The notes below the pieces were generated by a model. It did not search any database and was not told the origin of the DNA. It saw nothing but the letters and a program-made list of their open reading frames with translations. A program made the translations under genes and the position numbers. From Vigna angularis (taxonomy: Eukaryota > Streptophyta > Magnoliopsida > Fabales > Fabaceae), in the NCBI RefSeq assembly GCF_016808095.1, contig NC_068976.1:27946871-28010870 (forward strand): a stretch of DNA of 64,000 nucleotides. The letters are read 5' to 3'. Each line of letters starts with the position of its first letter. The stretch's first letter is position 1. Shown here piece after piece: positions 10,124 to 64,000 of the stretch.

Positions 10124-10163
10124 TCTGGCCTAGGAGGAAGATTTAGACTCTGAAGCAGTAATC

Positions 10164-11264
10164 TTGATGGCCAATACTGATGAAAATCAACCAGAAAATA
10201 CCATGTGGTATTTAGACTCTGGATGTTCCACTCACATGACCGGGAGAAAGGATTGGTTTGTGAGAATGCATGGGGATGGACATGGTAAAATTAGATTTAC
10301 AGACAACAACAGCTTGGCTCCAGAGGGTTCTGGCAGGGTGGTTTTGAGAGGTGAAGATGGAAGAGAGGTGATAATTGAAGAGGTACTATATGTACCTGGC
10401 TTGAAGACCAATTTTCTAAGCTTGGGACAACTTTTGCAGAAGGGTTACATGATGAAAATGGAGAACTATTGCCTCAATGTTTTTAACCAGAATAGGAAGA
10501 TTGTTGTGCAGGCCCAACTGTCATAGAACATAACATTTAAGGTGGCGATGGAGGCAGTAAATGATCAGTGTTTTACTGCAATAGAGAGTAAGGAAGAATG
10601 GCTGTGGCACCTCAGATTTGAACACCTAAACTTTAAAGATCTATCCCAGTTAAGCCAGAAGAGTATGGTAATTGGCTTACCAAAGGTGGACTTCCCAGAA
10701 GCAGTGTGCAAGGAGTGTGTCCAATGCAAACAGACTAGGGGTGTTTTTCAAAAATTGTTACCTTAGAAATCTGCAGAGAAGCTTGGGGTGGTCTATTCAA
10801 ATGTGTGTGGCCCTATACAAGTAGAAAAACCTGGGGGCAACAGGTATTTCTTATTGTTTATTGATTATTGGACCAGGAAATGTTGGGTCTACTTGTTGAA
10901 AAGAAAGGGGGAGGTGTTACAGATGTTTCAGAAGTTTAAAATTGTTGTTGAAAGGCAAAGTGAGAAGAAGCTGAAAGTCTTGAGAACAGATGGAGGAGGA
11001 GAGTATACCTCCACTGATTTCAAAGACTACTATGAAAAAGAGAGAATAGTTCATGAAGTTACCCCTCCCTACACACCACAACACAATGGGGAAGCAGAGA
11101 GGAAGAACATAACCATATTGAATATGGTTAGGTGCATGTTGAAGAGTAAAGGGCTGCCTAGTTTCCTATGGGGTGAGGTTGTGCTGACAACCACCTACAT
11201 TTTGAATTTGTCTTCAACAAAGAGATTGAATGGTATAACACCAGAGGAGGCCTGGACAGAGTGA
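10164..11264 (+). pseudogene. Copia protease and integrase remnant
   Basis: The aspartic protease motif WYLDSGCSTHMTG lies at about 10206-10244. The GAG-pre-integrase zinc domain follows (H-X3-H then C-X2-C: HLRFEHLN...CKECVQC, 10608-10732). The integrase core is at 10788-11264 with RTDGGGEYTS and the GEAERKN signature. Stops at about 10524 and 10766 and the break after 11264 divide it into pieces, so it is inactive. Confidence 0.88.
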
Positions 11265-13191
11265 AACCAGATGTCAAACATCTGAAAATTTTTGGTTCTC
11301 TGTGCTATAGACACGTACCTGATCAATTGAGGAAGAAACTAGATGATAAATGAATTTCATTGATTTTGGTGGGCTATAATGCTACAAGAGGTTATAAATT
11401 GTATGACCCTACATCTGGAACAACTTCTTAGTAGGGATGTTGTGGTTGATGAAGCTGGAAGGTGACAATGGGAATCAAATGAGAAAGAAGAACCAACCAT
11501 TGTGTTGGAGGATGAACCTGCAACAGTGGAGTCAGAGGCATGCAGGAGGGACGAGAATGTTAGAAGATCATCTAGAATCACTCAGCTGCCAACACACTTG
11601 AGAGATTATGATCTACCCTATGATGTAACCATTTCATCATAAGGTAATTTTGTTCATTATGCCTTAATAGAAGAAGTTGAACCTATGGAGTTTGATCAAG
11701 CAGTAAGGGATGAAAGGTGGTACAAGGCTATGCAAGAAGAACTAGATTCAATAGTGAAGAATCAGACCTGGGAATTGACAGAGTTGCCTTCCAACAAGAA
11801 GCCAACAACACTGAAATGGATTTATAAGTCCAAGATAAATCCACAAGGTGTTGGTGATTAGATACAAGGCCAGATTGGTGGCCAAAGGGTTCTTACAACA
11901 GGCTGTGATAGACTATGGATAGGTGTTTGCGCCTGTGGCCAGAATAGAGACAATTAGATTGGTGGTCTCCTTGGCAACATAGTTCAACTGGACTTTGCAT
12001 CAATTAGATGTAAAGTTTGCATTCTTGAATGGTAACTTGGAGGAAGAAGTTTATGTTGTTCAGCCTCAGGGATTTGAAGACAAGAGACATCCAGATAAGG
12101 TGTACAGATTGAAGAAGGCTCTATATGGGCTCAAGCAGGCTCTAAGGGCCTGGAATCAGAGAATAAATGGGTTTATGAGTAGCATTGGGTTTGAGAATTG
12201 TGCTTCTGAACATGGAGTGTATGTTCAGGGTTGTCAGCATAATGGGAGAGAAGAGAAGTTGATAGTGTGTTTGTATGTGGATGATCTGCTAATCACAGGG
12301 AGCAGTGAGGAGAAAATCACTGATTTCAAACTTTAAATGTTACAGGAATTTGAAATGAGTGATTTGGGGCGATTAAGCTACTTCCTTGGGATTGAATTTA
12401 CCAAAACTGATGGTGGAATGTTGATGCATCAGTCTAGATATGCATTGGACATGTTAACTAAGTTTGACATGCTTCATTGCAACTCTGCAAACACTCCAGC
12501 AAAGGTGAGTTTGAAGTTGGAAAAAGACCCTGAAGAAGAAGTTGTTGATCCTACTGAATACAGAAAGATGGTTGGAAGCCTAAGGTATTTATGTAATACT
12601 AGGCCAGACATCAGTTATAGTGTAGGTTTGATTAGCAGGTTTATGCAGAATCCAAGAATTTCCCACTTGAATGCTGTTAAACGAATCCTGAGGTACTTAA
12701 AAGGTATATACACCTTTGGAATATTGTTGCCGAGAGGGGAACCAGGAGGAGAGGTACGAATTAATGCCTACTCGGACTCAGATTGGTGTGGGGATAAGGG
12801 TGATAGGAAGAGTACTGTTGGGTATGTGTTCTTTCTGGGTGGAGCACCAATTTCATGGAGCTCTACAAAAGAACCAGTAGTGGCTCTTTCATCCTGTGAA
12901 GCAGAATACATTGCTGCTTGTGAAGCCACGTGTCAAGCAGCTTGGCTGTGTTCATTGATGAAAGAATTGAAGATGAAATTAGAGGGGAAGGTCAGACTGC
13001 TTGTGGACAACAAGTCAGCCATAGACTTGGCCAAGCATCCTACATCACATGGGAGGAGTAAACACATCGAGACTTGGTTCCACTACATCAGGGAACAAGT
13101 CAGCAAAGGGAAGCTTGAAGTGGTATACTGCAGGCTGAAGACCAGATTGCAGATATACTTATTAAGGCGCTTAAAAGTGAACGCTTTCTAG
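11265..13191 (+). pseudogene. Copia reverse transcriptase and RNase H remnant
   Basis: RT motifs: [11 protein letters not shown] (about 11998), ALYGLKQ and the catalytic YVDDLLITG (about 12274-12300). A stop at 12336 separates RT from the rest, which is open to 13191 and includes the RNase H part (SSCEAEYIAACEA at about 12889; HGRSKHIETWFHYIREQ near 13050). The 11265-11994 part is out of frame in places. The last ~20 residues shift away from the usual ADILTKAL ending. Confidence 0.88.
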
Positions 13192-14830: not shown

Positions 14831-15786
14831 TTATAAAATCATGAGTTAAAAAGGACAAGAAAATATGAAAGTATGTTTATTAACTAGATGGAGAATTCCA
14901 TCTATAAAGTAAACAATTTCACAAGAGTCACACATGTTACATTATTTAGATGGCTAGAAAACTAGGATAGACCAGTGGACATAGCACCCAGTTTAAATTT
15001 ATTGGCAATACGTCATACTGTAGACACCTGTTTCCAAAATGACTGTAACATTTGATTTAAGCTTTAATCTGTCTCACCTGAAATTCATGAAAAGAGTTTC
15101 ATTAATTTCCTAGTTTTGGAGATTTGGAAAATAAAGCAAGATGACAGAAAGGTCATTATATTATTTGAAAAAAATGAGTAAGAGTTGAAACTAGTGGCAA
15201 GTAATTGAGGATCATGTTTATCTAGTGCAAAACTGTTACACATCTTTGTACTCTTGTATTAATTTCAGATATGACCAAAATTTCATATTCTTACAAAACA
15301 GATTTAAGCAGCACTACCTCTTTTTATTACTGAGTTAAATAGGCTGAAATATTATCCACATAATCTCCTATTGCTAAATTAGCATAATAAATGTTACCTG
15401 ACCAATTTATTGCAATGCAGATGAGTTGGGTGATAACTTCAGGCATTGGTGTATTGTCCATACCACTCCTTTCTTTTTTAAATCATGACCATATACTTGC
15501 CATACATAACTGATAAACAAAATATAACTATTTAAAATGTTTAAACAAATCATGTCATCCATAATAAGGATAGATGAAAATTGCAATAGTTACGGTAAAA
15601 ACTGAAAATAGTAAGAGCAAATAAAACAGGATTATTTTTATTAAGTACGTAAGTGCCTCCTGACAGGATTTCATCATCGATCACAGTTTAACCAAAACCT
15701 TCTTAATAAAATAATATTTCACTTAACAACGTCATGATAATCCAAAGACATTGTAATTGTTTCTAGAAAAAAGACATGAATTTTAC
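14831..15786. other. Spacer between the kinase relic and NLR copy 2
   Basis: No gene. Blocks of it match 4770-5180 next to copy 1, including a shared stretch around GATGACAGAAAGGTCATTA. NLR copy 2 transcripts could extend into it (the third-exon reading frame continues past the donor to a stop at 15719). Confidence 0.5.
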
Positions 15787-21733
<5,947 letters not shown>

Positions 21734-31479: not shown

Positions 31480-31827
31480 TGTTAGACCATTAAAAGTGTA
31501 TATGAGGAGGAATAAAAGAAGAGAGAGTTAGTGGCAGGTAGAGGGGAAATCAGTTAGAGGAGAGAGGGTGAGTTTGTTAGAAGAGAGAGAGAGTATAAAT
31601 AACAAATAGTTTGAGAGAGGTAGGGGATGATGATTTTGGAATTAAGACTGGACCTCTTGGCCAGTGGAGGAAGAGAGGCTTCCTTGGGGGAGAGTGAGAT
31701 ACCGATATTCATCTTTTCTTATCATTACAGAGGAAATATCAATACATATACATACATATTTCTTATACTGTTGAGTGTGTGAGTATTATTTGCTGTTGTT
31801 CGGTTCCTTGCATAAAGGAACCTAACA
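31480..31827 (+). repeat. 5' LTR of the Gypsy element
   Basis: 348 bp bounded by TGTTAG at 31480 and CTAACA at 31827, an inverted terminal match. A TATA box (TATAAAT, 31594-31600) is followed by GA-rich and CT-rich leader sequence. The primer-binding region starts at 31828 (GATTTGGTCCGACC). Confidence 0.88.
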
Positions 31828-31870
31828 GATTTGGTCCGACCTGCCGGATCATTTCGGAGGGAAGAGGAGT

Positions 31871-32946
31871 GTGCGTGATCGGAGAAGAATGGAGGGGCGA
31901 ATGGTGGCTGTGGAGTCGACGATGGAGGAGTTGAAGGCAGAAATGCGAGCGATGACTCTTGAGTTTCGACGAGCCCTCGGAAGACGTTCTGGAACCCGCG
32001 ATAGGAGTTCTGAGGGGAGTCGAAATTCTGTCCAGGGTGATCGAGAACGAAGGTCGACAGAGAGCTTTGATGAAGAATCGGAGGAGGACCGGAACGACGT
32101 ACAACGCAGTTGGATGAAGCGAGTTGAGCTTCCAACTTTTGAAGGTACTGATCCAACGGGATGGATAGCGAAGGCTGAGAAATTTTTTGACATCCAAGGA
32201 GTGACGGAGAAAGAGAAGATGAAGTTAGTGTATATCTGCATGGACGGAAGCGCTAACTACTGGTTCCGCTTCTAGCGGAAGAAAACCCGACATCCAACAT
32301 GGAAGGCGTTCATGGAGGCGTTGACGAGGAGGTTCGGCGGATTAATTAGGGGAACCGTCTTTGAGAAGTTGGCCGCGGTGTGATAGAGAGGGGGCGTCGA
32401 TGAGTATATCCAGGAGTTCGACGTACTCGTGGCGCAGGCGACCGGAGTACCGAAGACCAATTGCTGGGATATTTTTTCGCGGGTTTGCAGGAGGGATTAC
32501 GAAACGCTGTGAGACCGCATGACCCACGCGATTTGTTGACGGCGATGGAGAGAGCTAGGGACATCGAACAAGTGGGATGGACGTCGCGAGGAAGTAGTGG
32601 AGTGAGAGGAAGAGGCAGAGCGACTTGGGGAAGATATTTCGCGAGTTCAGGGACGGTGGCGAGGACAGAAACTTTTCGTGGACCGTCAGAGGGATCGGTG
32701 AATGGCGGCGGAGGGCAAGGAATGAAGAAGGACGTTAGTACGAATACTATGGCTTCGAAGGCTGGTAACAGTGGAGGAGGAACCGCGGGACGAGGCATTC
32801 GGACCCTGCCTTATCAAGAATACATGAAGCGGCGAGAAGAAGGACGTTGTTTCCACTGCGGCGGACCTTACAGTCCAGGTCATCGTTGCGTTGAACGGAG
32901 TTGTCGGGATTGTCCGCGGGTGGCCTCTCGCAATCGAACACGATGA
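31871..32946 (+). pseudogene. Gypsy gag remnant
   Basis: The N-terminal gag is open from 31871 (in-frame ATG at 31889) to a stop at 32275. The capsid region continues past stops near 32380, and a second open part (32461-32946) ends with the zinc knuckle CFHCGGPYSPGHRC (about 32849-32890), the type seen in plant Gypsy gag. High GC compared with the surroundings. Confidence 0.85.
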
Positions 32947-33545
32947 AGCTGCAAGGTTGGGTGCAGGGGAAGAGAGTTCTGGTGCTTATTGACAGTGGAG
33001 CTACCCATAGTTTTATATCCACCCGATTGGTGGAAGAGCTGGGTCTGGAGTGCACCGACACACGCCCTTATAAAGTGTGTTTAGGGGATGGACAAAGGAA
33101 AGAAACCAGCGGGTATCACACATGAGTCTCGGTGTTATTAGAAAACTTAGAAGTTAGAGATAAGTTATATCTCTTTGAATTAAGCGGTGTGGACATAATA
33201 TTGGGAATGACCTGGTTATCCTCCCTAGGAGAGATCAAAGTAGATTGGGGACAACTCATCATGAAGGTGGTGCATGGAGGAAGAGAAGTGGAGGTAAAGG
33301 GGGATCCATCATTGACACGTAGGGTAGTGACTCCTGAAGCTCTTATAAAAGAAAAAGGGATTGAAATGATGTCTTTAGTATGGAGCTTAAGCCAAACAGA
33401 ATTGGTGGATGAGAAGACGGAAGAGAGTGGCTTAATGCAAGAGGAGGAGGTAGAGTTGGAACAAATTCTGAGTGCTTTTGAAGGGGTATTCCGAGACCCC
33501 AAGGCCTCCCACCCGAGAGGAGAGTGGATCACAGAATCCCTTTAA
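32901..33545 (+). pseudogene. Gypsy aspartic protease remnant
   Basis: The retropepsin motif VLIDSGATHSFIS is at about 32970-33010. The frame breaks at 33125 and resumes 33132-33545 with the protease-RT linker (VDIILGMTWLSSLGEI). The next frame (from 33524) overlaps, so a frameshift separates it from RT. Confidence 0.85.
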
Positions 33546-36023
33546 AAGAGGGTAGTGAGGTCGTCAATGTGAGGCCATACAGGTACCCTCATGGAATGAA
33601 AGCTGAGATAGAGCGTCAGGTGGAAGAGATGTTGAATTTGGGCATTATCAGGCCCAGTAACAGTCCCTACTCTAGTCCTGTAATATTGGTGAAAAAGAAG
33701 GATGGAAGTTGGAGCTTTTGTGTGGATTATAGGGCATTGAACAGAGTAACAGTGGCTGATAAATATCCCACAGTCATTGAGGAGCTGTTGGATGAACTTC
33801 AAGGTGCGTCATATTTTTCTAAAATTGATTTAAAGGCTGGGTATCATCAAATAAGAATGAAGAGGGAAGACATTCCAAAAACTGCTTTTCGGACACATCA
33901 AGGGCATTATGAATTCCTTGTGATGCCCTTTGGATTAACAAATGCACCAACCACATTCCAGGACATGATGAATTCAATTTTAAGGTCGCTATTGAGGAGG
34001 TTCGTGTTAATATTTTTTGACGATATACTCATCTATAGCAAGACTTGGGAGGAGCATTCTCAACACCTCACTCAAGTCTTAAAAGTCTTGGCTGAACATG
34101 AACTTTTTGCAAACAAAAAAAAAGTGTGAATTTGGGAGAAGACAAGTGAGATATTTGGGGCACAAGATATCGGCAACAGGGGTGGAGATGGACAGGGAGA
34201 AGGTGGCAGTTGTCTTGGAATGGCCAGAACCCAGAAACATCAAGGAGTTAAGAGGGTTCCTTCGGTTAACTGGGTATTATCGCAGGTTCATTAGAGATTA
34301 TGGGAAAATGGCTAAACCCCTTACTGATTTGTTGAAAAAAGGAATGTTTAAATGGTCTAAAGAGGGGGCCATGGCACTGCAGAAGCTTAAAGAGGCAGTG
34401 ACTACAGCTCCAGTGTTGATTCTCCCTGATTTTGAGCAACCCTTTGTTGTAGAATGTGATGCTTCGGATACAGGTGTTGGGGCTGTTTTGTCCCAGAAAA
34501 ACAGACCCATAGCCTTCTTTAGTAAGGCGTTATCTGATTCTTCCTTAACCAAGTCCATTTATGAGAAGGAATTAATGGCACTTGTGCTTGCTATACAACA
34601 TTGGAGGTCGTATCTATTGGGTCAGAAGTTTGTTGTCTTTACTGACCAGAAGAGTTTGCGTTATTTACTGGAACAACGCATTACAACTCAAAGTCAACAA
34701 AATTGGTTAGCTAAACTTTTGGGGTACGAATTTGAAATCAAATATAGGACAGGTGCTTCCAATCATGTGGCAGATGGGTTATCCAAAAAAGGCATGGAGG
34801 AGGAGGAAACAGATAAGATGCTACGGATGATATCACGACCATATTGGCTTGAATTTCAAGAGATCATGGAGGAGGTGGAAAAAGATGAGAGTTTGCAGAA
34901 AGTGTTGGAGGAATTAAGGGTAGACCCTAACTCTCATCCAGCTTATACGTTGGAGCATGGAAGATTACATTACAAGGGGAGACTTGTCTTATCAGCAAAA
35001 TCTGTTTGGATCCCTCGCTTGTTGGCTGAATTCCATAGTAGTGTCACGGGAGGGCATTCTGGGGTTTACAGAACCTATAGACGGGTGGCCCAATCTTTGC
35101 ATTGGATAGGAATGAAGAAAACTGTTACAGATTTTGTGGCTGCATGTCTAGTATGCCAACAACATAAATACTTGGCAACTTCTCCCCAAGGATTGTTGCA
35201 GCCTTTGCCAATACCCAAAGCCATTTGGGAGGAGATTAGTATGGATTTTATTGTAAAATTACCCAAATCTCATGGGTTTGATACTATATTGGTGGTGGTG
35301 GACAGACTTAGTAAATATGGCCATTTCATCCCAGTCAAACACCCTTATACAGCCAGATCCATCGCTGCATTGTTGGTGAAGGAAGTGATTCGGCTTCACG
35401 GGATACCCATGACCATTGTAAGTGATCGCGACTCAACATTCATGAGTGTTTTTTGGCAGGAGATTTTCCGCCTGCAGGGAACTCAGTTGAACATGAGTAC
35501 TGCTTATCATCCAGAGTCAGATGGCCAAACGGAGGTGCTGAATAGGGTGCTGGGAACGTATTTGCGTTGTTTTAGTTCTGAACAACCAAAAAATTGGAGT
35601 ACAGTGTTGCCTTGGGCGGAATATTGGTACAATACTAGTTACCAAGGAGCTTCAAAATGCACACCTTTTGAAACTGTGTATGGAAGACCCCCTCCAACTC
35701 TCACACGTTTCATTCCTGGAGAAACAGTGGTGGAAGCCGTTGCACAAGACTTACAAACAAGAGATGAGGCTTTGACACAACTTAAATATCATCTGGCCAG
35801 AGCTCAAGATCAGATGACCCACTATGTCAACAGGAAGAGAATGGACACCAAGATCAAGGAGGAAGATTGGGTATTCTTGAAAATCCGGCCTCATAGACAA
35901 ACTTCTATGCCCACACGCTTACACCCAAAACTTTCTGCACGGTATTTTAAAACCCGCGGATACATATGGATACCCGCGGATACCTGCAAATATTTAAAAA
36001 AATATATTTTTATAAAATATTAA
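33524..36023 (+). pseudogene. Gypsy reverse transcriptase, RNase H and integrase
   Basis: [15 protein letters not shown] (about 33825), MPFGLTNAP and the catalytic FFDDILIYS (about 34012-34038), a common variant of YVDD. A run of nine A near 34117-34126 shifts the frame; the following frame is open from 34098 to 36023. RNase H: VVECDASDTGVGAVLSQ (about 34450) and YEKELMALV. Integrase: zinc-binding HSGVYRTYRR...CLVCQQHK (about 35060-35165), the D,D-35-E core (MDFIVKLPKS, VSDRDSTF, YHPESDGQTEVLNR). The last ~24 residues come from the inserted hAT-like element. Confidence 0.9.
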
Positions 36024-50639: not shown

Positions 50640-51775
50640 GATTTTTTATGTTATGGACATATCTACTTACAACATGAGAAATATATGTCGGTGAATGCGA
50701 AGTTTATATAAAGGAAGTAGAAAGACAATTAGATTGAAAAGTGAAAATCATAAAGTTAGATAGAGGTGGTGAGTATTATGGAAGATATGTGAAAGTGGAC
50801 AATATCCTGGTTTATTTGCTAAGTTCATTGAAAAACGTGATATTTGTGCTTAATACACAATGTTAGGCACACCACAATAAAATAGTGTGTCAGAGAGGTG
50901 TAATCGAACCTTAATGGATATGATTAGGAATATGGAAGATATGTGAAAGTGGACAATATCCTGGTTTGTTTGCTAAGTTCATTGAAAAACGTGATATTTG
51001 TGCTTAATACACAATGTTAGGCACACCACAATAAAATAGTGTGTCAAAGAGGTGTAATCGAACCTTAATGGATATGATTAGGAATATATTAAGTAATTCA
51101 TGTTTATCCTTATCACTGTGGATGTATGCTTTAAACACTATCGCGTATTTGCTGAATAATTCCTAGTAAGGTTGTTCAAAGAACTCCTTTTGAGTTATGA
51201 ACAAGTAAGAAACCAAGTTTGAGACACTTGCATGTTTGGTTGTCAACAAAAGTAAGAATGTACAATCTGAAAGAAAAAGAAACTGAATGAAAGAACAATC
51301 AATGGATATCTCATTGATTATCCAAAAAAATAAAAAAAGGATATATGTTTTACTATCCTACTCATAGTACAAGAATCATTGAAATTGAAAATGTTTAGTT
51401 CATTGAGAATGGTTAAATCAGTAGGAATGAAGATTCACGAAATATGGAGATTAAAGAAGTTAGAGTACAAGTTATTGTAGCTAGTACCTCTTCTTCAATA
51501 ATTGTTGTTCCCTATGTTGTAGAATCACACAACAAACAAGAAAAATGACAAATTAATGATCTTGAGGTTAATTATGAGCTGATAGTAAAACAACCACAAA
51601 AAATAGTATTAAGAAGATCTCATAAAGAAAGAAAGTTTGTCATTTCGAATGATTATGTGATTTATCTACAAAGAGTCGCAAAATGACTTGAGTATTGATA
51701 ATGATCCAATTTCATTTTCAGATGCTATGAAAAATAAGCTTAAATTAATGAGACATAATGACATATGGGACCTTG
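50640..51775 (+). pseudogene. Copia retrotransposon remnant, integrase to start of RT
   Basis: Read across frames, the plus strand shows the Copia integrase core (LDRGGEYYG at about 50756) and, near the right edge, the start of the RT domain (SDAMKNKL...HNDIWDL, 51718-51772). It is interrupted exactly at 51775 by the CACTA element; the reading resumes at 58262. Many stops; a 154-bp internal tandem duplication lies inside (50778-51085). Confidence 0.82.
50778..51085. repeat. Tandem duplication, 154 bp x 2, inside the Copia remnant
   Basis: The block starting ATGGAAGATATGTGAAAGTG at 50778 recurs at 50932 with only two or three differences and covers the integrase segment twice. Confidence 0.92.
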
Positions 51776-51809
51776 CACTACAAGAAAAAATTGAATTACA
51801 TACAGTCAA

Positions 51810-52105
51810 AATCCGTATATAAGCTAAAATCCATATATAACACTTGGTTACATACGACTTATATACGGACAAAAATCCGTATATAAAACTATCGTAGATA
51901 AATTATATACGGATATATCCGTATATAATTTATATACGGATTTTTTCGTATATAATTATATACAAAAAAATCTGTATGTAAAATCCGTATATAAATTATA
52001 CACGAAAAAATCTGTATATAAAATCTGTATATATATTATATACGGAAAAATCCGTATGTACAGTCTGTATATAATTTATATACGAAAAAATCCGTATGTA
52101 ACTTA
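51810..52105. repeat. Left subterminal repeat array of the CACTA element
   Basis: More than a dozen copies of ATATACGGA or TCCGTATATA in both orientations. In CACTA elements such arrays bind the TNPA-type protein. Confidence 0.85.
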
Positions 52106-52414
52106 TGGTTTTATAAAAAAAAAATTGAATGATCTCACATCTACACCCAATAACTAATAGTTTCATATACTGATAAAAGTCAAATAAAACTGTCAAATTA
52201 TAAAAAATAATACCAAATATCTGTCAATTTTTATTAAAACGTGATGTTTACAACTGGATGGTCCTACCTCATTGTAACTAGATTGTCATCGGATATTACA
52301 AAAATTAAGGCAGAGGTAACTGACTATGCAATATATACTATTATACTATTGAGACAAAAGTTAGTCATGTTATATTCTACTTTGATCCATTGCAAAAGTT
52401 ACAAAACCATGAAA

Positions 52415-53712
52415 CTATGGTCGAACTGGTAAAGCTTTGGGCAAAGCCTCATGAGCAGTGACTGACAGAGTCTGAAGCTTGCAATAAGAGGAAATGAAGG
52501 GAGAATAGTCTCCACTTCCATCTCCAAGTTCTTCTCCATCACTCCAACCATGAATCTCAGCCTTAAGAAGTGAAGGATCTCTGCATATCAGATCCCACAA
52601 TGGAAAGTTCTTCCTTGGCATCATAAAGTCCTTCTCTTTCAACCTCAAACTTGGACAATAGTGTTGGAACAATCGGTACCGTTATAGAGTCGCGCAGCGG
52701 AATAAAGTAAGATAACGGAAAGCGTGTAACGATCACAACACAAGTTAAAATAGTCGGTTTTAAAAATTGATTTTCTTAGCGAACTTTTATCGAACAGTTG
52801 ATGTGCTAAGAGTTTAGGGATCAAGAAAATCAACACAGAATTTTTATCCTGGTTCGAATCAAAAGATTCTACGTCCAGTCGTTAATCACTATAAATAGTG
52901 ATTAACCTTTTTCACTAAAAATATAGTTGTACATATTACAAGATAAATGAAATGAGCAAAGAATAGAAAACACCTTCCTTCGACAAACGAACCGGAAGAG
53001 CTTCCTTCGACGCACGAACCGGAAGCAACAACTCTGTCAACTTGAAGAGGACTGCTCCGACCTTTGACACACAAAGCGCGAGCTTCTCCTATTCACAAGA
53101 CCAGACAAGAGCACTCTAACACTTTGAGAACTTCCTCAGACAAACTGTATTCTCAAAATGGCATAAATCCTTTTCACTCAGAGAGAGCTTCCCTTAGGCA
53201 CAAAGCTCTAATACTCTCAATTGAAAAGTTCTTTCTAAGAGCTGTGAAGACCTCTATTTATAAGCCTAGTTTCGTGCAGGGTCAAAAAAACTGAAAAGAC
53301 ATCTCCCAACTGTCATTGATAATCGATTATCAAAAGTGATAATCGATTATTCAAGTCCGTTACAGGGTTTTCAAAATGTAATAATCGATTATATAATGTG
53401 ATAATCGATTATTCCTGTATGACTCTGTGATAATCGATTATTGTCATTCCATAATCGATTATTGCAGTTAAAAATGCAAGTTTACAAAGTTTACAAGAAT
53501 TTCCTACTACATTTAATTTCTACAAATTGCTTTTAACTAATTCTAATATCTTCTTCAACTAAAACTTCTTGCAACATCATCAAAACAAATTTCTTCATGA
53601 TTTACCAATACTCCTTATTGGTAACAAATAGTCTCCACTTCCATCTCCAAGATAGATCAACCTCTTATCCTCTTCTGATATTGAATCTTGGATTCTCTCT
53701 ATCACTAAACCC
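52415..53712 (-). pseudogene. Captured HAD phosphatase exon (PPsPase1/thiamine-phosphate phosphatase-like)
   Basis: Last exon of a HAD-superfamily phosphatase of the PHOSPHO-like family. On the minus strand it begins after an intron acceptor (GATTGCAG|GG, 53713) with LVIERIQDSISEEDKR, then LIYLGDGSGDYCPS, LRLKEKDFMMPRKNFPLWD and AEIHGWSDGEE. The DGSGD motif is the conserved Mg-binding part of the family. A solo LTR splits it after the Tyr of GDY (53627/52661); skipping the LTR and one target duplication restores the frame. Beyond SDGEE (52529) the family sequence is lost: GDGSGDY recurs, followed by unrelated residues to a stop at 52415. Non-functional as a phosphatase. Confidence 0.85.
52662..53626. 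mobile_element. Solo LTR nested in the captured phosphatase exon
   Basis: 965 bp from TGTTGG to GTAACA with the perfect 5-bp duplication AATAG on both sides (52657-52661, 53627-53631). It contains no coding domain. Six copies of the 12-bp palindrome ATAATCGATTAT lie at 53319, 53339, 53381, 53401, 53430 and 53451. ORFs at 52889-53074 and 53064-53294 are by chance. Confidence 0.92.
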
Positions 53713-54964
53713 TGCAATCATTCACACAAAATAACGTCTTTCAATCTTTGATAATTAAAGAAGCTTCAACCCAACATTTCATAATTTTGTATTTATTTGG
53801 AACTATTGGTGGGGCCTATGTCAAAAATAATCCTTATTCTGTATTTCAATCAAATCCTATGGGCTCATACCAAAGACAAAACCAGAATGGCATGGTTGCT
53901 TGGTTAAGAAAAATTTTGATATTTTTTAAGGCCGAGAAATCAAGAAACAGCACTCCACAGTTAGCACTTGTCAACATGATTAAAAATAGAAAATAATACT
54001 TTCCCAGAAACTAGAGTCAGTTAACATCAACTTGAAAACAATATCTGGAAATGTGTGTAGTTGCCAACTGCATATACCACAATACAAACCTGTAATATAT
54101 ATAAACACAACTATCCATCACAATAGTTTTCATTCAACACCATACCAAACATTTTACATTTAAAATAGATATATTACATAAACAACTTAACAAAATATAC
54201 TCAAACCTATTAATGAATTATTGAACACTTACAATATCAAATTTACGATTTTTCATACAATCAAGAGGCGTGAAAAGATTTTGTTTGGATAATGATATCT
54301 CTTCCAATACATTGTTGAAATTGCACACAAATTCTAATTTTCACTTCAAGCATCTCAATTACACTCCTGAAAAGAGAAAAGTACTATTAAAATTGGTCTG
54401 TTACTGGATTTTCTCTAGCTAAATTTTAAAATTGAGACATAGTGATTGTAGACCTATAACCCACAAAAGATGGCAGCACATTCTGAATGGGGTACAAGGC
54501 GTCCAATGAAGCTAGAAGAAATAAAACACGACATACTTCAATTAAATTTTTCCAAAATAATAAAAAAACTTATATTGAGATTTACAATGAAACACTTGCC
54601 TCCAATTGAAATTAAACTAAAACTAATTTGAAAAAGGATACTTACACTTCATAAAATTTGCAGTATATCAATACATCAACATGGAACTTTAATTAGAAAT
54701 CCTAGGAAGATGATAAGGCAATGGGAATTTTAAAAAAATATTTCTAGGATAAAACTAAAGAAAACATAGAAAAATCACACAGATAATTAATTAAGAGCTA
54801 GTCAGAAAAAACTTGATAACTAGGCAAACTAATAAAAGTGCAGTAAAAAAAAGAAGCTAAATCCGTGAGTCATCTTTGGAGGATGTGGTCAAAAAGCTTT
54901 AGACATAACTAAAAATGTATATACAATTTTTTTTCACATGTCTTAGATTAATAAAAACGGTGGC

Positions 54965-55085
54965 ATCAATATACCATTTTGCTTCTTCGATTGATCTCTC
55001 AAGATTTAATATAAGAACAAACTTCTTATCCAAAGGCCACTAAACTTTAATTCTGCAGCCAATTAGATCTTCAGCATCACTTTCA
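54965..55085 (-). pseudogene. Captured PDS5-like Tudor-domain fragment
   Basis: The minus strand encodes DAEDLIGCRIKV, a stop (TAG where Trp is expected), WPLDKKF and then VLILNLER. Plant PDS5 cohesin-associated proteins have (D/E)LxGxRIKVWWPxDKxFY at the start of a Tudor domain and a VLxLxxERWE strand near its end, so the middle appears deleted. Identification is from motif memory over about 25 residues. Confidence 0.6.
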
Positions 55086-55965
55086 CCTTTCTTTGTTGTA
55101 CACTATAGGAAAGTGTAGAACCACTTTACTTTTTAATCTTATAGATACAAAGAATGTGAGACAGTAATGTCCCATGATATTCACATTAAAATGACACCTA
55201 TGTTAAAGTTGTATTTTTTTTCCTTTTTATAATTACCAAAGACGAAGATATTTCTTCGACTACAATTAAAATATAATGAAAAGGTACGTTATTTCACTTG
55301 TTTAAAAACTTCACTTATTTCGTTTTGACCCTTTTCTCACAGTAATGATGTTACAATGATCACAGACAAAGAATTTAAGATCCAAGATAATCAAATAAAA
55401 TATAGATTTATTATGTGTTAAGTCTAGGGGTGGACAAAAATCCTTTTTCCCCATCGGATCAACTTTTGCACTGTTTTGATCTATTTAGAATTCATTTCAT
55501 CAAATCTGTTTTTCGGTGACTAATTGGGTACCAGGAGCCTCTTTGGATGAGCTTCTTTATAAGCTCTTTTTAAAAGAGAAATATAAGAAGAACCTTTATC
55601 ATAAACTAAAATTAATTTATCCATATGTTACTTTGCAGAACCTTTATCATAATTCCTCTAACTTCTTATTTTTAACTCATGCATAAACTAAATTTGGAAC
55701 TTGTCAAGTAGCTATACAAACAAGTTTAAGTAAAAAAAAAATTAAGACTCTTTATATGCCAAGGATTATGATTGAGCATTTAAATATTCATGTGAATTAC
55801 ATCACCCCTACCTAATTTTGGGCCACACAGTGATAAATGGCATCCTTTGCATTATAAGAATACAAACACACAACCTGATTTCAATTCATGATGATCAAGA
55901 GTTTATTACTTGAGCATGGCAATACCTATTCAATTATAACTGCTTTCACATTAAAAATGTCTCAC

Positions 55966-56023
55966 CTTCTTAATAAAATCTGTCAGGAGAAATAACAGGT
56001 CCATTGGGTAAGGTCTTCCCATC
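55966..56023 (-). pseudogene. Captured phosphatidate phosphatase (PAH/lipin) exon piece
   Basis: After an acceptor (TTTGCAG|GAT) the minus strand reads DGKTLPNGPVISPD, matching the lipin motif DGKxLPxGPVVISPDGLFPS with one Val missing, then diverges to a stop. A GTGAG donor-like end follows at 55965-55961. Lipin-type enzymes make diacylglycerol from phosphatidate; this scrap is far too short for activity. Confidence 0.65.
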
Positions 56024-56720
56024 CTGCAAATATATGAACTTTTAGTATCACCTAAAGGTAGGGAATGTACCAGCTAACAGATATAATTCTGCTTTGAATG
56101 ATATATTATTCACAGTTTTTCTCCTCTTCTTGAAACCAAATCAGAGGATAATTTTCTTGGTAATTTGTATTTGACACAATTTGATTTCATAAAGTAAGGC
56201 TACACACTAAAGCTACTTTTTTAATACAAGCCACAAAAAATTATATTAAATACAAGTTCACCACACTCGACATATACCTCATTGCACCAAAACTAAATAG
56301 ACAAGTATAAAATATGCAACCAAACGTATGAAGAAGAGTCAACATAACCAAAATTCTCAAATCAACTTTAGGATGGGAAGTTTGGAAAGATTTGTTAAAC
56401 AAAGATGCTGAGTTAAAAGGCTAAAATATCTTATTATATAAAGATGAGGAACCCAAAACTTTCATGTTCGACAGAGTAGACAACCCAATTTTTATGTTGA
56501 ATCTAGCCTACTTGGGTTGTACTGCTACGCCATTTCTCCAGGTAGTCTTAACTATTTATAGCTGATATAGAAAAGAAATTTAAGGTAAAATGGCTTATTA
56601 ATTAATAACCAAGTTCCAGATAACAATCTCAGTGGGGTCAGGTGCTCAGAACAAAATAACCTTAAAGATCATTCTATTTTTCCTGTACATTCCTTCCAAA
56701 GATAGCCTTAAAGTAAACAA

Positions 56721-56912
56721 CTAATTCTCCTGAGATTGATGACCACAACGGGTACATGTATAGAAAGTAGTTTGTCCTTCATCTGCTGATCTCATCTGAA
56801 AATAGAATGATTGAAATAAATAATTCTGGACTATAAATAAGATTCAGATCAAATTTCCAAATATACATTATAAAGTCTAACGATACCTGTCGTGGTGAAG
56901 CAGTAGCCTTCA
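56721..56912 (-). pseudogene. Captured RNA polymerase I subunit RPA12-like zinc-ribbon fragment
   Basis: Two exon pieces joined by an intact small intron. The upstream piece (about 56912-56887) reads KATASPRQ where the family has an (A)xYYTRQ-like segment. The intron is 56886-56796 (GTATCG...TTTTCAG). The last exon (56795-56721) reads MRSADEGQTTFYTCTRCGH then QSQEN and a stop. This is the C-terminal TFIIS-like zinc ribbon, with the SADE catalytic-loop residues and a C-X2-C pair. Retention of the intron shows DNA-level capture rather than retroposition. Confidence 0.82.
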
Positions 56913-57204
56913 AAATAGAAATTGGGAGAAAGTGATGCAAACCAATCTCTCCCCATTACATAACTCCATGAACATTCATACAATCATTTCATCAAAAACC
57001 TAGAGTTTGTTTCTCTTCACATTTTAGGTACTGTTATAGGTTGGATTGGTTTACAAATAGTTAATATCCACATTTTATACATTCTCATCACTCTATACAT
57101 AACATTTGCATTTCAGAATTAGAATAGAAGAAAACAAGAAATAGTCTTGCGTTTGTGACTCATTCAATAATATTCTCAATCATAAAACACATAAAAAAAA
57201 AACC

Positions 57205-57437
57205 TTAAAAGCCCTCTGAATCTTCCCTAAACGCAACATCGGTAATATAAATATCATTGTATGAAGGCCTGAAGGCGCGATTTAAACTGTAATGAGGCTC
57301 CTCCGGTGAAGAAACGCAGCGGAATGATGTAAATTGGGAAGAGAACTCGAGACCAAGAGCCGAATCAATGGCGAACGAAAACAAACCCTGAGAATCCAGG
57401 AATACTCCAAAAACGGAGAGGATTCGACGTGAAGAAC
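57205..57437 (-). other. Unidentified open frame at the 5' side of the CACTA cargo
   Basis: A stop-to-stop frame of about 76 codons on the minus strand includes FSFAIDSALGLEFSSQFTSF and SYNDIYITDVAFREDSEGF, with balanced, non-repetitive composition and higher GC than nearby DNA. No ATG in frame. It could be a first-exon piece of a fifth captured gene or part of the element's own gene; I do not recognise it. Confidence 0.45.
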
Positions 57438-57984
57438 CCTAAAATGGATCGATTAATCGGTGTAAATGATGCTAATCGAAGAATCAATCGGTGGAAAGGC
57501 TTTTAATCGATAGGAAAGAGGATTTAATCGGTTGAAAATGAAGAAAATGGTGAAAAGAGGTTGGAGCCCTAACTAGAGATGTAGACCGACTAATGAATCG
57601 GTAGAACAAACGTTCTATGGTTGCAAAGGCTATGGAAAAACTAAATATGAAAGAAGAAGAAGATTGTGTGAAGAGAAATGGCTTGCGAATGAGGAGCTCT
57701 CGAGTGGAAAGAGGAAACTCGAGGAAGACGAAATGTGAAAGAAGAGAGCAAACCTGAATGGAAGATAGCGTTCAAGACGAAGGAGAAAAGCCACACGCAC
57801 GCACTGATGAAAACGAAGAAAAAGCTCGAAGGAGGGATCAAGAAGTTCACGTCGAATTGAAGAAGCATGAGGAGGAGTAAAGACTGGGAAGAAGCTTAGA
57901 GAAGAGAGGAAAGTGAAGAAGGTTAAGGAAAGAGGGTTCCAGGAAAGAGGCTGAAACTTTGATTTTTTTTTTAAATAATGATTT

Positions 57985-58258
57985 TCCAAATCCGTATATA
58001 TTATAGGTAAATAAAACTTGTTTTTAGTTATATACGGATTACAACAATTACATACAGATTTTATCCTTCGAAAATCTTCCCGCCATCACACGCTAAAATT
58101 ATATACGGATTTTATATATAGATATTCAGTAGATAAAAATCCGTATATAATATCCGTATATAATTTATTTTTCAAAATCTGTATATAATATCTGAATTAT
58201 ATACGGATAATAATCTGTATATAAATATCCGTATATAAATGTAATATTTCTTGTAGTG
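57985..58258. repeat. Right subterminal repeat array of the CACTA element
   Basis: Many copies of ATATACGGAT / ATCCGTATATAA in both orientations, mirroring the left array. Confidence 0.85.
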
Positions 58259-58261
58259 TTG

Positions 58262-58682: not shown

Positions 58683-59047
58683 GGTTTAATGATTCGGTAG
58701 GTCCTTTTTTGTGGACAAAATCTCAAATAGGACCCCTATTCATTTTTTTCTTAATTGGGTCCTTAATTTTGAAAAATTGAAACCAATAGAGTCATGCCGT
58801 TAAATTGGACTAATGTCGTTCGACTGGCGTGTACGTGGCAAGTTGATGGTGTTTTTTTTTTTAATGACGTGGCATAGGTTATATGGTTAGTAGGTGATTG
58901 TGACATGTAAAATCATAATTTTTAATTAAAGAAATTGGTGAAAATTGAATTAAACTCAACCCCTTTCTTGGAGTGAATTAGAGAAAGTGGAGAGTAATTT
59001 TGGGAAATTAAGGTTTATAGCAGAACCCCATTTTTGCAACCTGTGCG

Positions 59048-59644
59048 TTGGCGCATGCGGTGATATTATGCGAGAGAAAAGACACAGAGGAAGAAGACGA
59101 CGATGAAGACAACAGAGAAGTAGATCGGTATATATATTTGAAGATTTCAACCATGATCTGGGAGAGGCAATATTACACGAGGTTGTTTGGGTTGCATGTT
59201 GTTGTTGTCATACGCCTTCGAAGATTCTTCAACACAGATGACTTTGTTTTAAAGTTCTTCTTGCCTGTAGATTGCAATGATAATGAAGAGCCGAGAAAGA
59301 TGCTCACATCATTGTCCATCATTATACAAAGGCTTTGTCGCAGCTTGCGAGTTATAAGTGAAAAGGAATTGGAGGAAGCTAACTTGTCAATTGATGAAAT
59401 TATTTTCCTTGTAGATGGTGGATTTGATAGGACTGCAATTTTTGAGGAACTTCAACACAAAGGGATGGTTGCCTCATTGGATAATGAAGAAAAATTAAGT
59501 GAAACTATTGGTACAAAGTTCTCTGACCTAAGGCAACAACAAGAAAGTCCTCTTTTAAAAGGAAACCTTGATTGTGTCAGGAAGTGTTCTACTTCTGTTC
59601 AGGGTAGCTTATCAAGTGTGGGAAAGAGTAAAATCGGTGTTTGA
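59048..59644 (+). CDS. Unidentified ORF inside MULE 1
   Basis: 198-codon ORF with non-repetitive composition: an acidic stretch (EEEDDDEDN, near residue 15) and a helix-rich second half (SEKELEEANLSIDEIIFLVDGGFD). I do not recognise a family. Possibly a captured and fused host fragment; the acidic stretch lies right where the inverted repeat ends, so the N-terminus may be element-derived. The track-style start gives GCATGCGGTG context and is not certain. Confidence 0.35.
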   Translation: MAHAVILCERKDTEEEDDDEDNREVDRYIYLKISTMIWERQYYTRLFGLHVVVVIRLRRFFNTDDFVLKFFLPVDCNDNEEPRKMLTSLSIIIQRLCRSLRVISEKELEEANLSIDEIIFLVDGGFDRTAIFEELQHKGMVASLDNEEKLSETIGTKFSDLRQQQESPLLKGNLDCVRKCSTSVQGSLSSVGKSKIGV

Positions 59645-59869
59645 TCATCACCATTGTGGTCCTCCCCCGAAACCAAGCGCGCCTTCTTGGCGGCGGTTCT
59701 TAGTAACAAGTTTTCCACCTCTTGCTCGTCGCTTCTGTCGACTTTCTTCCTCAAGTAGAACCACAAATCACAAAAATTACCAAAGCCCTAAAATCTCTTA
59801 ATTTGAAATTCGTATAAACCATAATTTCCCAAAATGAATACCTATTTTCTCTAATTGATTCCCAATTTT

Positions 59870-60060
59870 TTCGTCAATGAACCCTAATTCGAAGAAACAA
59901 CTTTTACTTTCTTTTCGTAATCCCTAATCCGAAGAAAGTTATGAGTTTAATTAACTTTTTCAACATTTTCTTTTATTATCCATTTTCGCCACTGATTCCT
60001 AATTCAAAGAAGCAAACACTCACTTTCTTTTCACAAACAAATCCTAATTCGAAGCACCCT
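59870..60060. repeat. Imperfect repeats in MULE 1
   Basis: CCTAATTC(G/A)AAGAA(A/G)CAA with CACTTTCTTTTC follows itself three to four times at about 59880, 59920, 59997 and 60047. Confidence 0.6.
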
Positions 60061-60362
60061 CACAATTTTTCCCAATTTGTTTTCGCAAATGTGAATTGGA
60101 AGGAAGAAAGGGTTGCGTTGAATTAAAATTCCCCAATTTCTTAATTAAATAATTACAAATTACACATCACATTATGTCACATCATTAGAAAAACACAATT
60201 AGCATGTCACGTATACGCTAGTCTAACGATGTTTGTCCAATTTAATGGTAGGGCTTTATTTGTTTTAATTTTTCAAAATTAAAGACCAAATTGAGAAAAA
60301 AATAAGTAGGGGTCCTATTTGAAATTCTGACTCAAAAAAAGGACATGTCGAATCATTAAACC

Positions 60363-61051: not shown

Positions 61052-62478
61052 GGTTTAATAGCCAACTTTGTCCCTAGTTTGGTTGACAAATCTCAATTTA
61101 ATCCCTCTTTAGAAAAATGTTTGAAATTGGTTCTTACTTTTAAATTTTTGAGTCAAAATAGTCTCTTCCGTTAAGTATAACCAAACGGAGTTAATGGGTT
61201 AATGATGTGACACTAATTATTGATTACGTGTCAAAAAATGTGCTTACATGTTGGTTAATTAGGAAATAAATTAGGGAAGAAAGGATTTTATTCAGAAAGG
61301 ATTTTTTAATTGGGGAAATAAAATAATTTGCAACTGTTTCATTCTTTTTTTCTAAAAAAAAAATAATATCTCTTGTATCTCGGCCCATAACCCCAATCTA
61401 TCTTGATCCTCTTCTCCCCTCTGCGCCACCCATATCAACACATAACCATCATCATTTCCGTACCCCTTCTTATGCTGCCACCAACCATCACACTCTTCAT
61501 CCTTACGTACCTTCATTCACCAACATCTCTTTAACCTGCACCCAGAAAGCTAAGCAATATCCAGAGAAGAAAAACATTAAGTGGAGAAGACTAGCCAATA
61601 AACATCACACTCCCCAAAAATCAAATTCAATCTGCTTCATTTTCTTAATCCAATAAAAAAGGAGGCAGAATCTACTCTCATCATCTTCATCAAATTTTAA
61701 CCTAGGAATTCATTCCCCATTTCCCCAATTTCTTTTTAGTACGCAAACCCTAATCCGCACCCTTTAGTGAAGAAATCCGTTGTCCAACGATAACGATAAC
61801 AGAGATCGATCCTTATTAGATGATTGGTGCGTTCATCCGCATTACCGGTGTCGAGGTTGTTGCGGCGAGTTCCCTCGCCCAGAAGATTGGTTCCTTCTCC
61901 ACTCTGAACCGCGGCGTCGGCGACGACAGTCCGCGGGTAGTATGGTGGTGCTCTTGGTGGCAGCGTCAGCGTGAGTGGTTGGCTGCTGCAACCGGCACGG
62001 GTCTCAGCCAGCCGGAGGAGATGCAGCGGATCGAGGCGGAGAATCGCGACGGTGGTGATCCTGGTTCATGTCGTTGGCGTTGCAGGAATAGACGAGACTC
62101 CTCTCGCGCGCGAAAAGCGGGGATGAAGGTTTCGACCTGCTGCGTCCAGCGTAGGTGGCGTCGTCGGTGATGCTCTTGGCCGGCAGAAAAGAGGTGCGAC
62201 GCCGCGAGTGGGGAGAAGATGGCTGCTAAATTAAAAAACCCAATTTCTGAATAAAATCCTTTCTTCTCTAATTAACCAACGTAAGAATATATTTTCACAC
62301 GTAATCAATAAGTAGTGCCACATCATTAATCAATTAACTCTGTTTGGTTATACTTAACGGAAGAGACTATTTTGAGTTAAAAATTTAAAAGTAAGGACCA
62401 ATTTCAAACACTTTTCTAAAGAGGGACTAAATTGAGATTTGCTAACCCAAACTAGGGACAAAGTTGGCTATTAAACCT
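61052..62478. mobile_element. Mutator-like element (MULE) 2, 1.4 kb
   Basis: Terminal inverted repeats of about 250 bp, starting GGTTTAATAGCCAACTTTGT and ending in the complement, with well over 85 percent identity by eye. Flanks TTAATTGTTA (61042-61051) and TTAATTATTA (62479-62488) are a 9-10-bp target duplication with one change. The interior, about 61780-62215, is strikingly GC-rich with overlapping open frames; no transposase. Possible Pack-MULE. Confidence 0.9.
61820..62170 (+). CDS. Unidentified GC-rich ORF inside MULE 2
   Basis: 116-codon frame rich in Arg, Trp and Ala. Two frames are open here (61780-61974 and 61820-62170), as often happens by chance in GC-rich DNA, so coding status is uncertain. 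The GC jump relative to flanking AT-rich arms suggests that this segment came from elsewhere in the genome. Confidence 0.3.
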   Translation: MIGAFIRITGVEVVAASSLAQKIGSFSTLNRGVGDDSPRVVWWCSWWQRQREWLAAATGTGLSQPEEMQRIEAENRDGGDPGSCRWRCRNRRDSSRARKAGMKVSTCCVQRRWRRR

Positions 62479-63269: not shown

Positions 63270-64000
63270 CACTCCAAAAAATATGTGTTAAACAAAATTA
63301 AGTAAACGCTTCAATATTTTACTTTTATAATGAAAAGGCATTGGAACCTGCCAAGGCTGAACGTAGGTGGTCCGAGTGGGAAGGGACTGAACCTGTTGAG
63401 CGACGACTGATAGGAGTTCTTTTTTGAACTTTTTCCTATGTTGAGCGGAGGCATTAGAAGTTCTTTTTTGAACTTCTCTCCAAGTGGCGAATGATAGGAG
63501 TTCTTTTTTGAACTTCCTACGTTGAGCGGAGGCGTTTGTAGTTCTTTGTGAACTTCTCTCCGAGCGGTGAATGGTAGGAATTCTTTTTTGAACTTCCTAC
63601 GTTGAGCGGAGGCGTCTGATGTTCTTTTTTGAACTTCTCTCCGAGCGGTGAATGGTAGCAATTCTTTTTTGAACTTCCTACGTTGAGCAAAGGCGTCTGA
63701 AGTTCTTTTTCGAACATTTTTCTATGAAGATATTTTCACTCACAAAAATGTATATGGGTTAAAAAAAATATTTAATATTTTATAATCTTCTTTTATATGA
63801 AGAGCCATTGGAACCTGACAAGGTTGACAAGGTTGAACGTTACTGGTCCAATCGACCCTGCGGTAAGAGATTGAACCTTCATGTGCATGATATTTTTACT
63901 CACGAAAATATGTGTTAAATAAAATATTCAACATTTTATTTTTATAATGAGATGACATTAGAACCTGATAAGGTTGAATGTTGGTGGTCCAACTGACCAA
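63270..64000. repeat. Spaced repeat, three copies, flanking the 80-bp array
   Basis: A block reading AAAATATGTGTTAAA(C/T)AAA ... ATAATGA ... GGAACCTG(C/A)(C/T)AAGG(C/T)TGAACGTTGGTGGTCC occurs at about 63280-63375, 63745-63850 and 63905-64000. Confidence 0.78.
63400..63725. repeat. Tandem repeat, about 80-bp period, 4 units
   Basis: AACTTCCTACGTTGAGCGGA recurs at 63511, 63591 and 63672 (periods 80 and 81), with a more diverged unit before. Each unit contains GTTCTTTTTTGAACTT, itself an inverted repeat (AAGTTC/GAACTT). Confidence 0.88.

What the first reader, a model, noticed from the sequence alone, without database searches (positions are those of the whole stretch)
51776..58258. CACTA transposon carrying pieces of at least four unrelated host genes, all in one orientation
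Seen: exact CACTA ends, TTG target duplication and subterminal arrays. Inside, on the minus strand and in this order, are motifs of an RPA12-like zinc ribbon, a lipin-type phosphatase, a PDS5-like Tudor domain and a PPsPase1-like HAD phosphatase. Known: plant CACTA elements, such as soybean Tgm-Express1, can transduplicate gene fragments. Inference: a single minus-strand transcript from the right end could splice these exons into a chimeric RNA or a source of antisense/small RNAs for four unlinked parent genes. This particular cargo combination may be undescribed.
Basis: partly seen in the sequence, partly recalled or inferred. Interest (0 to 1): 0.86.

Follow-up and report, generated by a model that had tools for sequence, protein, structure and literature searches.

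The report
Bean transposon carrying seven loci's pieces
A cut-and-paste DNA transposon of adzuki bean carries stretches that match seven other places in the genome, six of them recognisable genes that all point the same way; its core recurs at nine places, and annotation databases list pieces of sister copies as proteins; the stretches were likely stitched in by DNA repair, and no function has been shown.

Summary
Confirmed and extended. The element 51776-58258 (6,483 bp) has exact 12-bp CACTA ends, TTG duplications and subterminal repeats confined to its ends; joining the flanks restores a copia reading frame. The host assembly (Vigna angularis) shows more: the interior matches seven outside loci on six chromosome-sized contigs: a PF06888 phosphatase, a CDC6-like gene, a PDS5/RDM15-like Tudor gene, an unidentified locus, a carboxylesterase intron, lipin and RPA12. 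The six recognisable genes all lie one way. The core (phosphatase, CDC6-like, start of the Tudor block) recurs at nine places; five of nine carry all seven blocks at least in part; six of nine show both ends with their own target duplications. Three adzuki annotation proteins come from sister copies, two of which fuse a CDC6-like exon to the phosphatase exon; that frame is open in six of nine copies, but substitutions look neutral. Three block junctions abut without CACTA remnants, and the phosphatase exon holds a templated filler. It is a non-autonomous Pack-CACTA, like soybean Tgm-Express1: a new member of a known kind. Transcription, splicing and small RNAs were not tested.

The parts
51773..51775 (.). 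left target-site duplication TTG
51776..51787 (+). left terminal inverted repeat CACTACAAGAAA
51776..52250 (.). left backbone with subterminal ATCCGTATA/TATACGGAT repeats; 52067-52249 shared with many other places in the genome
52383..54077 (-). block matching a PF06888 phosphatase gene pair (C9:2.02 Mb): intron piece (74-76%) and complete terminal exon with native stop (83-84%); solo LTR not counted
52415..52661 (-). second part of the phosphatase terminal exon, to its stop codon
52504..52528 (-). templated filler: copy of exon sequence at 53627-53651, replacing about 45 nt of the parent exon, with short shared bases at both edges; exact in 7 of 9 copies, remnant in the other 2
52662..53626 (.). 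965-bp solo LTR (TGTT...AACA) with 5-bp duplication AATAG, inserted in the captured exon; absent from this position in the 8 sister copies
53627..53711 (-). first part of the phosphatase terminal exon, after an AG acceptor
54065..54194 (.). backbone segment also present at about 78-80% in related CACTA elements L033-L036
54182..54441 (-). block matching a CDC6-like gene (C6:21.706 Mb), exon 54233-54366 with AG acceptor and GTAAGT donor; 81%; 2-bp deletion near 54334 in this copy, L009 and L010
54445..55112 (-). block matching a PDS5/RDM15-like Tudor gene (C6:30.66 Mb); 84-90%; second and third Tudor exons missing
55022..55102 (-). first Tudor exon, in-frame TAG at 55040-55042, donor GTAAGT changed to GTTTGT
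55194..55359 (.). block matching an unidentified locus (C7:34.89 Mb), 87%
55515..55922 (-). block matching an intron of an Abhydrolase_2 (phospholipase/carboxylesterase) gene (C4:36.12 Mb), 80-81%
55921..56088 (-). block matching a lipin-type phosphatidate phosphatase gene (C2:43.45 Mb), 81%; exon 55966-56023 with AG acceptor and GTGAGA donor, frame broken
56093..56912 (-). block matching the RPA12 gene (C11:21.487 Mb), 92%: end of penultimate exon, intron, last exon 56721-56795 with stop, 3' flank
56913..57244 (.). sequence repeated at four other places at 79-80%, not identified
57382..58258 (.). right backbone shared with other CACTA copies, with subterminal repeats 57990-58238
58247..58258 (-). 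right terminal inverted repeat
58259..58261 (.). right target-site duplication TTG
51596..51775 (+). left flank: copia polyprotein frame, continues at 58262 (DIWDL|VKFPKGCKRV) when the element and one TTG are left out
   Evidence: family named by motif (recalled)

Best explanation
The interval is a non-autonomous CACTA transposon (a Pack-CACTA) of adzuki bean whose interior is a mosaic matching seven host loci, likely copied in one after another by repair synthesis with template switching inside an older element, and then presumably carried to other sites by transposase supplied from elsewhere. Shown: ends, target duplications, empty site, seven matching loci, one orientation for all six recognisable genes, a core shared at nine places (six with both ends and their own duplications), the filler, and annotated proteins that come from sister copies. 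Inferred: that the seven loci are the donors, the repair route and order of capture, mobilisation in trans, and transcription from the right end toward the left with host exons spliced as cassettes. No protein function is likely: the captured phosphatase part lacks the N-terminal exons, and substitutions among copies look neutral.
For: Exact ends, TSD and end-confined repeats. No transposase family in six frames. Seven matching loci on contigs C2, C4, C6 (two), C7, C9, C11 at 74-92%; those that could be read keep neighbouring exons of the same gene. Gene orientation known for 6 of 7 blocks, 6 of 6 minus. Nine places share the core, pairwise 0.967-0.994 over the part aligned, about 52380-54660 without the LTR; 5 of 9 (window, L009, L010, L014, L015) carry all seven blocks at least in part; 6 of 9 have both ends with matching distinct TSDs TTG, AAT, CAC, TGT, ATG, AAA. 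Three junctions (near 54441, 55921, 56088) abut with about 0-7 bp between blocks; no subterminal repeat in the interior and one weak end-like 12-mer. Filler copied from the same exon, exact in 7 of 9, remnant in 2. None of the seven source stretches fetched has a CACTA end (<=1 mismatch; 0-3 scattered repeat-like 9-mers each). P0030 matches L013 and P0001 matches L015. P0030's longest contig, 42,641,100 bases, equals the length of C4.
Against: Later internal deletions, which sister copies show, could have removed CACTA remnants between blocks, so direct junctions do not exclude capture by neighbouring insertions. Only three block junctions were aligned to both sources. Four of nine copies lack the lipin and RPA12 blocks (L011, L012, L013, L016), and three of nine lack two recognisable ends in the stretch fetched. 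The one-orientation pattern (6 of 6, two-sided sign test 0.031, my arithmetic) is suggestive only. The CDC6 assignment rests on Pfam hits below the curated cut-offs (6e-4, 0.0017, 0.0087) and motif reading; two PDB searches gave nothing. No RNA data; no autonomous partner was sought.
Confidence: 0.85

Rival explanations
1. The gene pieces were enclosed by two neighbouring CACTA insertions that then moved as one element (the model proposed for Arabidopsis Pack-CACTA), with repeated rounds and later internal deletions bringing the blocks together.
For: Model described in PMC8903248 and PMC13317346 (passages). Internal deletions are common among sister copies. A backbone segment (54065-54194) lies between the phosphatase and CDC6-like blocks.
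Against: Blocks come from six contigs and three junctions abut within a few bases; no subterminal repeats remain in the interior; no CACTA ends near any of the seven sources in the stretches fetched. A filler copied from the same exon points to template switching.
Confidence: 0.25
2. The element works as a source of new genes or regulatory RNA: the right end drives a transcript whose spliced product (CDC6-like exon fused to the phosphatase exon) or small RNAs act on the parent genes.
For: Three adzuki annotation proteins come from sister copies; donor and acceptor of the fusion intron kept in 9 of 9 copies, frame open across the fusion in 6 of 9; one model is named isoform X2; Tgm-Express1 exons are spliced into chimeric RNAs in soybean (PMC1947982).
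Against: 7 synonymous and 20 nonsynonymous distinct substitutions, as expected without selection (p = 0.64); window, L009 and L010 share a frameshift, and the acceptor of the CDC6-like exon reads CAAG instead of CAGG in L010 and L016; the window exon is split by a solo LTR; the Tudor exon has a stop codon. Models may be unsupported predictions.
Confidence: 0.12
3. The cargo is an old chimeric pseudogene cluster into which CACTA ends were placed, or an assembly artefact.
For: None found.
Against: Nine places with the same core, six with both ends and distinct TSDs; empty site in frame; protein models under three different naming schemes contain the sister sequences.
Confidence: 0.02

Closest known systems
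Tgm-Express1 (soybean CACTA in the wp allele of F3H1)
   Same: Legume CACTA of 5.7 kb with exon/intron pieces of five unrelated host genes; the exons are spliced as cassettes of one transcript, which implies a common orientation (my inference; PMC1947982 abstract and three sections read).
   Different: Different cargo; here seven outside loci, a core at nine places in one genome, insertion in a copia relic and not in an expressed gene; no RNA evidence here. End sequences were not compared by any search.
Pack-CACTA / Pack-TYPE elements (Arabidopsis, rice, maize)
   Same: Non-autonomous, CACTACAA ends (the search seed in PMC8903248, passages), captured coding DNA, material from more than one locus, some misannotated as protein-coding genes.
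   Different: Direct gene-to-gene junctions and a templated filler here; the published model is capture between neighbouring insertions (passages).
Tpn1-family elements of Japanese morning glory
   Same: CACTA elements that carry host gene pieces (recalled; only a listing of the I. nil genome paper was seen).
   Different: Not compared by any search.
pvCACTA1 of common bean
   Same: Abundant CACTA family of a related legume (PMC4938662, start of abstract, passages).
   Different: The passages seen do not give its ends or any captured genes; not compared by sequence.

Membership tests
CACTA superfamily | Terminal inverted repeats starting CACTA | tested here: met
   12 of 12 at both ends
CACTA superfamily | 3-bp target-site duplication | tested here: met
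   TTG here; AAT, CAC, TGT, ATG, AAA in five sister copies
CACTA superfamily | Subterminal repeats in both orientations | tested here: met
   20 matches, ends only
CACTA superfamily | Encodes TNP2-type transposase (autonomous members) | tested here: not met
   No transposase family in six frames; a non-autonomous element is not excluded by this
Pack-CACTA | Carries host coding DNA that matches loci elsewhere in the genome | tested here: met
   Seven loci
Pack-CACTA | Moves as a unit (copies with independent TSDs) | tested here: met
   6 of 9 places with both ends and distinct TSDs; internal make-up varies, 5 of 9 with all seven blocks at least in part
Pack-CACTA | Mobilised by a related autonomous element | not tested
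   No search for an autonomous partner was made
Tgm-Express type exon cassette | Captured exons spliced into chimeric RNAs | not testable with these tools
   Only splice sites and annotation models seen
Functional chimeric gene | Purifying selection on the fused frame | tested here: not met
   7 syn / 20 nonsyn in the phosphatase exon of nine copies, expected syn fraction 0.216, p = 0.64; low power

The most novel reading that the evidence does not exclude
This CACTA lineage is an exon-stitching machine: after excision or breakage its gap is filled by polymerase switching between unlinked genes, and only pieces whose splice sites point the same way as transcription from the right end survive, so the family keeps building and dispersing new multi-exon chimeric genes (CDC6-phosphatase here, a multicopper oxidase piece in the L013 sister) and sense RNA of a PDS5/RDM15-type silencing factor.
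Probability: 0.15. Interest if true: 0.78.

Novelty: new member of a known kind. Interest (0 to 1): 0.5.

Why it matters
Gene-capturing CACTA elements are known, but how they acquire their cargo is still argued from few cases (my reading of the passages). Here one element has seven traceable source loci, nine places to compare, direct junctions and a filler of known origin, so capture by template switching versus neighbouring insertions becomes testable by comparing Vigna genomes. It also shows that three adzuki annotation entries are transposon-borne and not ordinary host genes. If the orientation bias holds across the family, it would suggest that splicing-compatible cargo is favoured.

Tried and rejected
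Rejected: chance motifs (matching genes found); a pre-existing cluster or assembly artefact (nine places); a separate two-exon 'fifth gene', as P0030 first suggested: its first exon matches intron sequence of the PDS5-like gene and its second the CDC6-like gene. No signal: purifying selection on the phosphatase exon.

Led nowhere: PDB searches of the long phosphatase exon part, the lipin piece and two CDC6-like exons; Rfam scan of the window (0 families); Pfam on the L027 and L019 neighbourhoods (0 families; for L019 five of six frames were given); Pfam on related element L038, three plus frames only (0 families). Paper searches: CACTA + Vigna + gene capture, 0 papers; the annotation locus names, 0 papers; CACTA + adzuki bean + transposon, 4 papers, of which the adzuki genome paper names CACTA once, in a list; a broad adzuki/Pack-TYPE search held 713 papers and does not bear on the point. 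The source of 56913-57244 was not settled. That this cargo is undescribed rests only.
Full report
WHAT WAS CHECKED. The finding describes a CACTA element at 51776-58258. The ends CACTACAAGAAA / TTTCTTGTAGTG are exact and are the only two perfect copies in the window. TTG flanks both sides. Repeats related to ATCCGTATATAA give 20 matches, all in the first 330 and last 270 bases of the element, where 0.29 are expected in the whole window. Leaving the element and one TTG out joins ...NDPISFSDAMKNKLKLMRHNDIWDL with VKFPKGCKRVRCK..., a continuous frame that I recognise (recalled motif) as a copia polyprotein, with stops further out on both sides. So the element inserted into a retrotransposon relic.

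THE FOUR FAMILIES. All are on the minus strand in the order stated. RPA12 and the phosphatase are significant alone. The Tudor piece matches 7de9 at 3.4e-4, which PMC8184781 identifies as the Arabidopsis RDM15 Tudor domain (passages only). The lipin piece is weak alone, but the one protein returned, P0121, a willow phosphatidate phosphatase, hits the 64-kb window best at this place (1.5e-4 against 0.87 for the next). A six-frame Pfam scan of the element found the phosphatase and RPA12 families in minus frames, nothing in plus frames, and neither lipin nor Tudor.

HOST AND SOURCE LOCI. The genome tool answered six searches. The window lies at C7:27946871-28010870 of a 448-Mb assembly. The adzuki protein P0030 is listed with a contig of 42,641,100 bases, the length of C4, and its residues 84-169 are encoded without a difference at L013 on C4, so the host is Vigna angularis. 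Local alignment gives the mosaic, in window order: phosphatase gene pair on C9 (52383-54077, 74-84%), CDC6-like gene on C6 (54182-54441, 81%), PDS5/RDM15-like gene on C6 (54445-55112, 84-90%), an unidentified C7 locus (55194-55359, 87%), an intron of an Abhydrolase_2 gene on C4 (55515-55922, 80-81%), the lipin gene on C2 (55921-56088, 81%) and RPA12 on C11 (56093-56912, 92%). The source loci were read: the first phosphatase gene shows four coding exons with an N-terminal DFDKT motif that the captured part lacks; the lipin gene shows the exon and three neighbouring ones, and its read-through into the next intron agrees with the element; the PDS5-like gene shows three Tudor exons, of which the element keeps the first (my reading); the CDC6-like gene has a P-loop piece and a Cdc6_C-like piece on the same strand, both below Pfam's cut-offs. 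A backbone of left end, a 130-bp segment (54065-54194) and right end is shared with other CACTA elements that have other interiors.

ORIENTATION. For six of seven blocks the direction of the source gene is known, and all six lie on the minus strand of the element; the seventh is unidentified. In the sister L013, which shares the phosphatase and CDC6-like blocks but differs beyond them, a multicopper oxidase piece (1.4e-17) is also on that strand. In the related element L034 a weak GTP cyclohydrolase match (0.004, below the cut-off) would lie the other way. A sign test on 6 of 6 gives 0.031 (my arithmetic); this is suggestive only.

COPIES. Nine places match at least 896 of the 904 bases of 53717-54620, and all eight sisters also have the phosphatase exon, L011 and L013 with deletions in it. 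Beyond this core they vary: window, L009, L010, L014 and L015 carry all seven blocks at least in part; L011 lacks lipin and RPA12; L012, L013 and L016 lose most of the middle. Partial copies lie elsewhere. Six of the nine, counting the window, have both ends and matching distinct duplications; for L011, L012 and L016 both ends were not found in the stretch fetched. Pairwise identity over the aligned part is 0.967-0.994. The solo LTR (965 bp, duplication AATAG) interrupts the exon only in the window copy.

ANNOTATED CHIMERAS. The database search with the phosphatase exon returned 254 proteins (best 120 listed), mostly plant phosphatases by their names, and among those listed three adzuki proteins. 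P0001 (VIGAN_04053100) and P0030 (LOC108332078 isoform X2) join the CDC6-like exon, in P0030 preceded by a piece of PDS5-like intron, to the captured phosphatase exon. P0001 matches L015 at 100% and P0030 matches L013 (100% over residues 84-169; its first residues match L013 only partly). P0028 (LR48_Vigan05g079000) has residues 1-82 at 96% in L013, about 540 bases inside the right end, and residues 120-207 at 97% in the phosphatase exon there: a model that starts within the element and reads toward its left end. Whether any has transcript support is unknown here.

HOW IT WAS BUILT. Three junctions were aligned to both source loci; blocks meet within about 0-7 bases. The interior has no subterminal repeats and one weak end-like 12-mer, and the seven source stretches fetched have no CACTA end. 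Inside the phosphatase exon about 45 nt of the parent are replaced by a copy of sequence from about 150 bases upstream (LTR not counted), with short shared bases at both edges; it is exact in 7 of 9 copies and partly deleted in the other 2. These features fit repair synthesis with template switching better than enclosure by neighbouring insertions, but later deletions could mimic the junctions.

DOES IT DO ANYTHING. The GT and AG of the intron between the CDC6-like and phosphatase exons are kept in 9 of 9 copies; the acceptor before the CDC6-like exon is altered in L010 and L016. The fused frame is open in 6 of 9 (130-158 residues within the stretch read) and closed by a shared 2-bp deletion in the window, L009 and L010. 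Twenty-seven distinct substitutions in the phosphatase exon divide 7 synonymous to 20 nonsynonymous, as expected without selection (p = 0.64, low power). I therefore think it a passenger transposon with exon-like cargo, as in Tgm-Express1, whose exons are spliced into chimeric RNAs (PMC1947982, abstract and sections read).

NOVELTY. Pack-CACTA elements with several captured loci are known (PMC8903248, passages). No paper on this element was found in the searches named in Tried and rejected. It is a new, unusually well traceable member of a known kind.

Noticed in passing
   Followed up: partly
L013 (C4:24122900-24129900), 3790-3987 minus: Sister element with the same phosphatase and CDC6-like cargo but a multicopper oxidase (Cu-oxidase_3, 1.4e-17) piece further on, same strand.
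   Followed up: partly
L033-L040: Related CACTA elements with the same backbone and largely shared other interiors; L034, L035, L036, L038 (3.7-5.1 kb) have matching TSDs.
   Followed up: partly
L034 minus: Weak GTP cyclohydrolase I match (0.004) in a related element, possibly another captured piece in the opposite direction.
   Followed up: no
P0038 (Vigna mungo V8G54_010418): Phosphatase-like protein 91% identical to the captured exon over 65% of the query, whose last residues resemble the translated 3' flank of the captured exon; may descend from the true donor.
   Followed up: no
window 5179-8585 and 15719-21676 minus: Long leucine-rich and nucleotide-binding frames repeated about 10-12 kb apart: likely an NBS-LRR gene pair (recognised by motif, recalled).
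   Followed up: no
window 9298-13191 and 31826-36023 plus: Copia-like and gypsy-like retrotransposon frames (recognised by motif, recalled).
   Followed up: no
window 58683-60362 and 61078-62450: Two large inverted repeats (174-nt arms 82%, 170-nt arms 90%) right of the element, possibly further transposons.
   Followed up: no
window 50777-51087; 63411-63715: Two copies of a 154-nt unit at 98%; an 81-nt tandem array of 3.7 copies.
   Followed up: no
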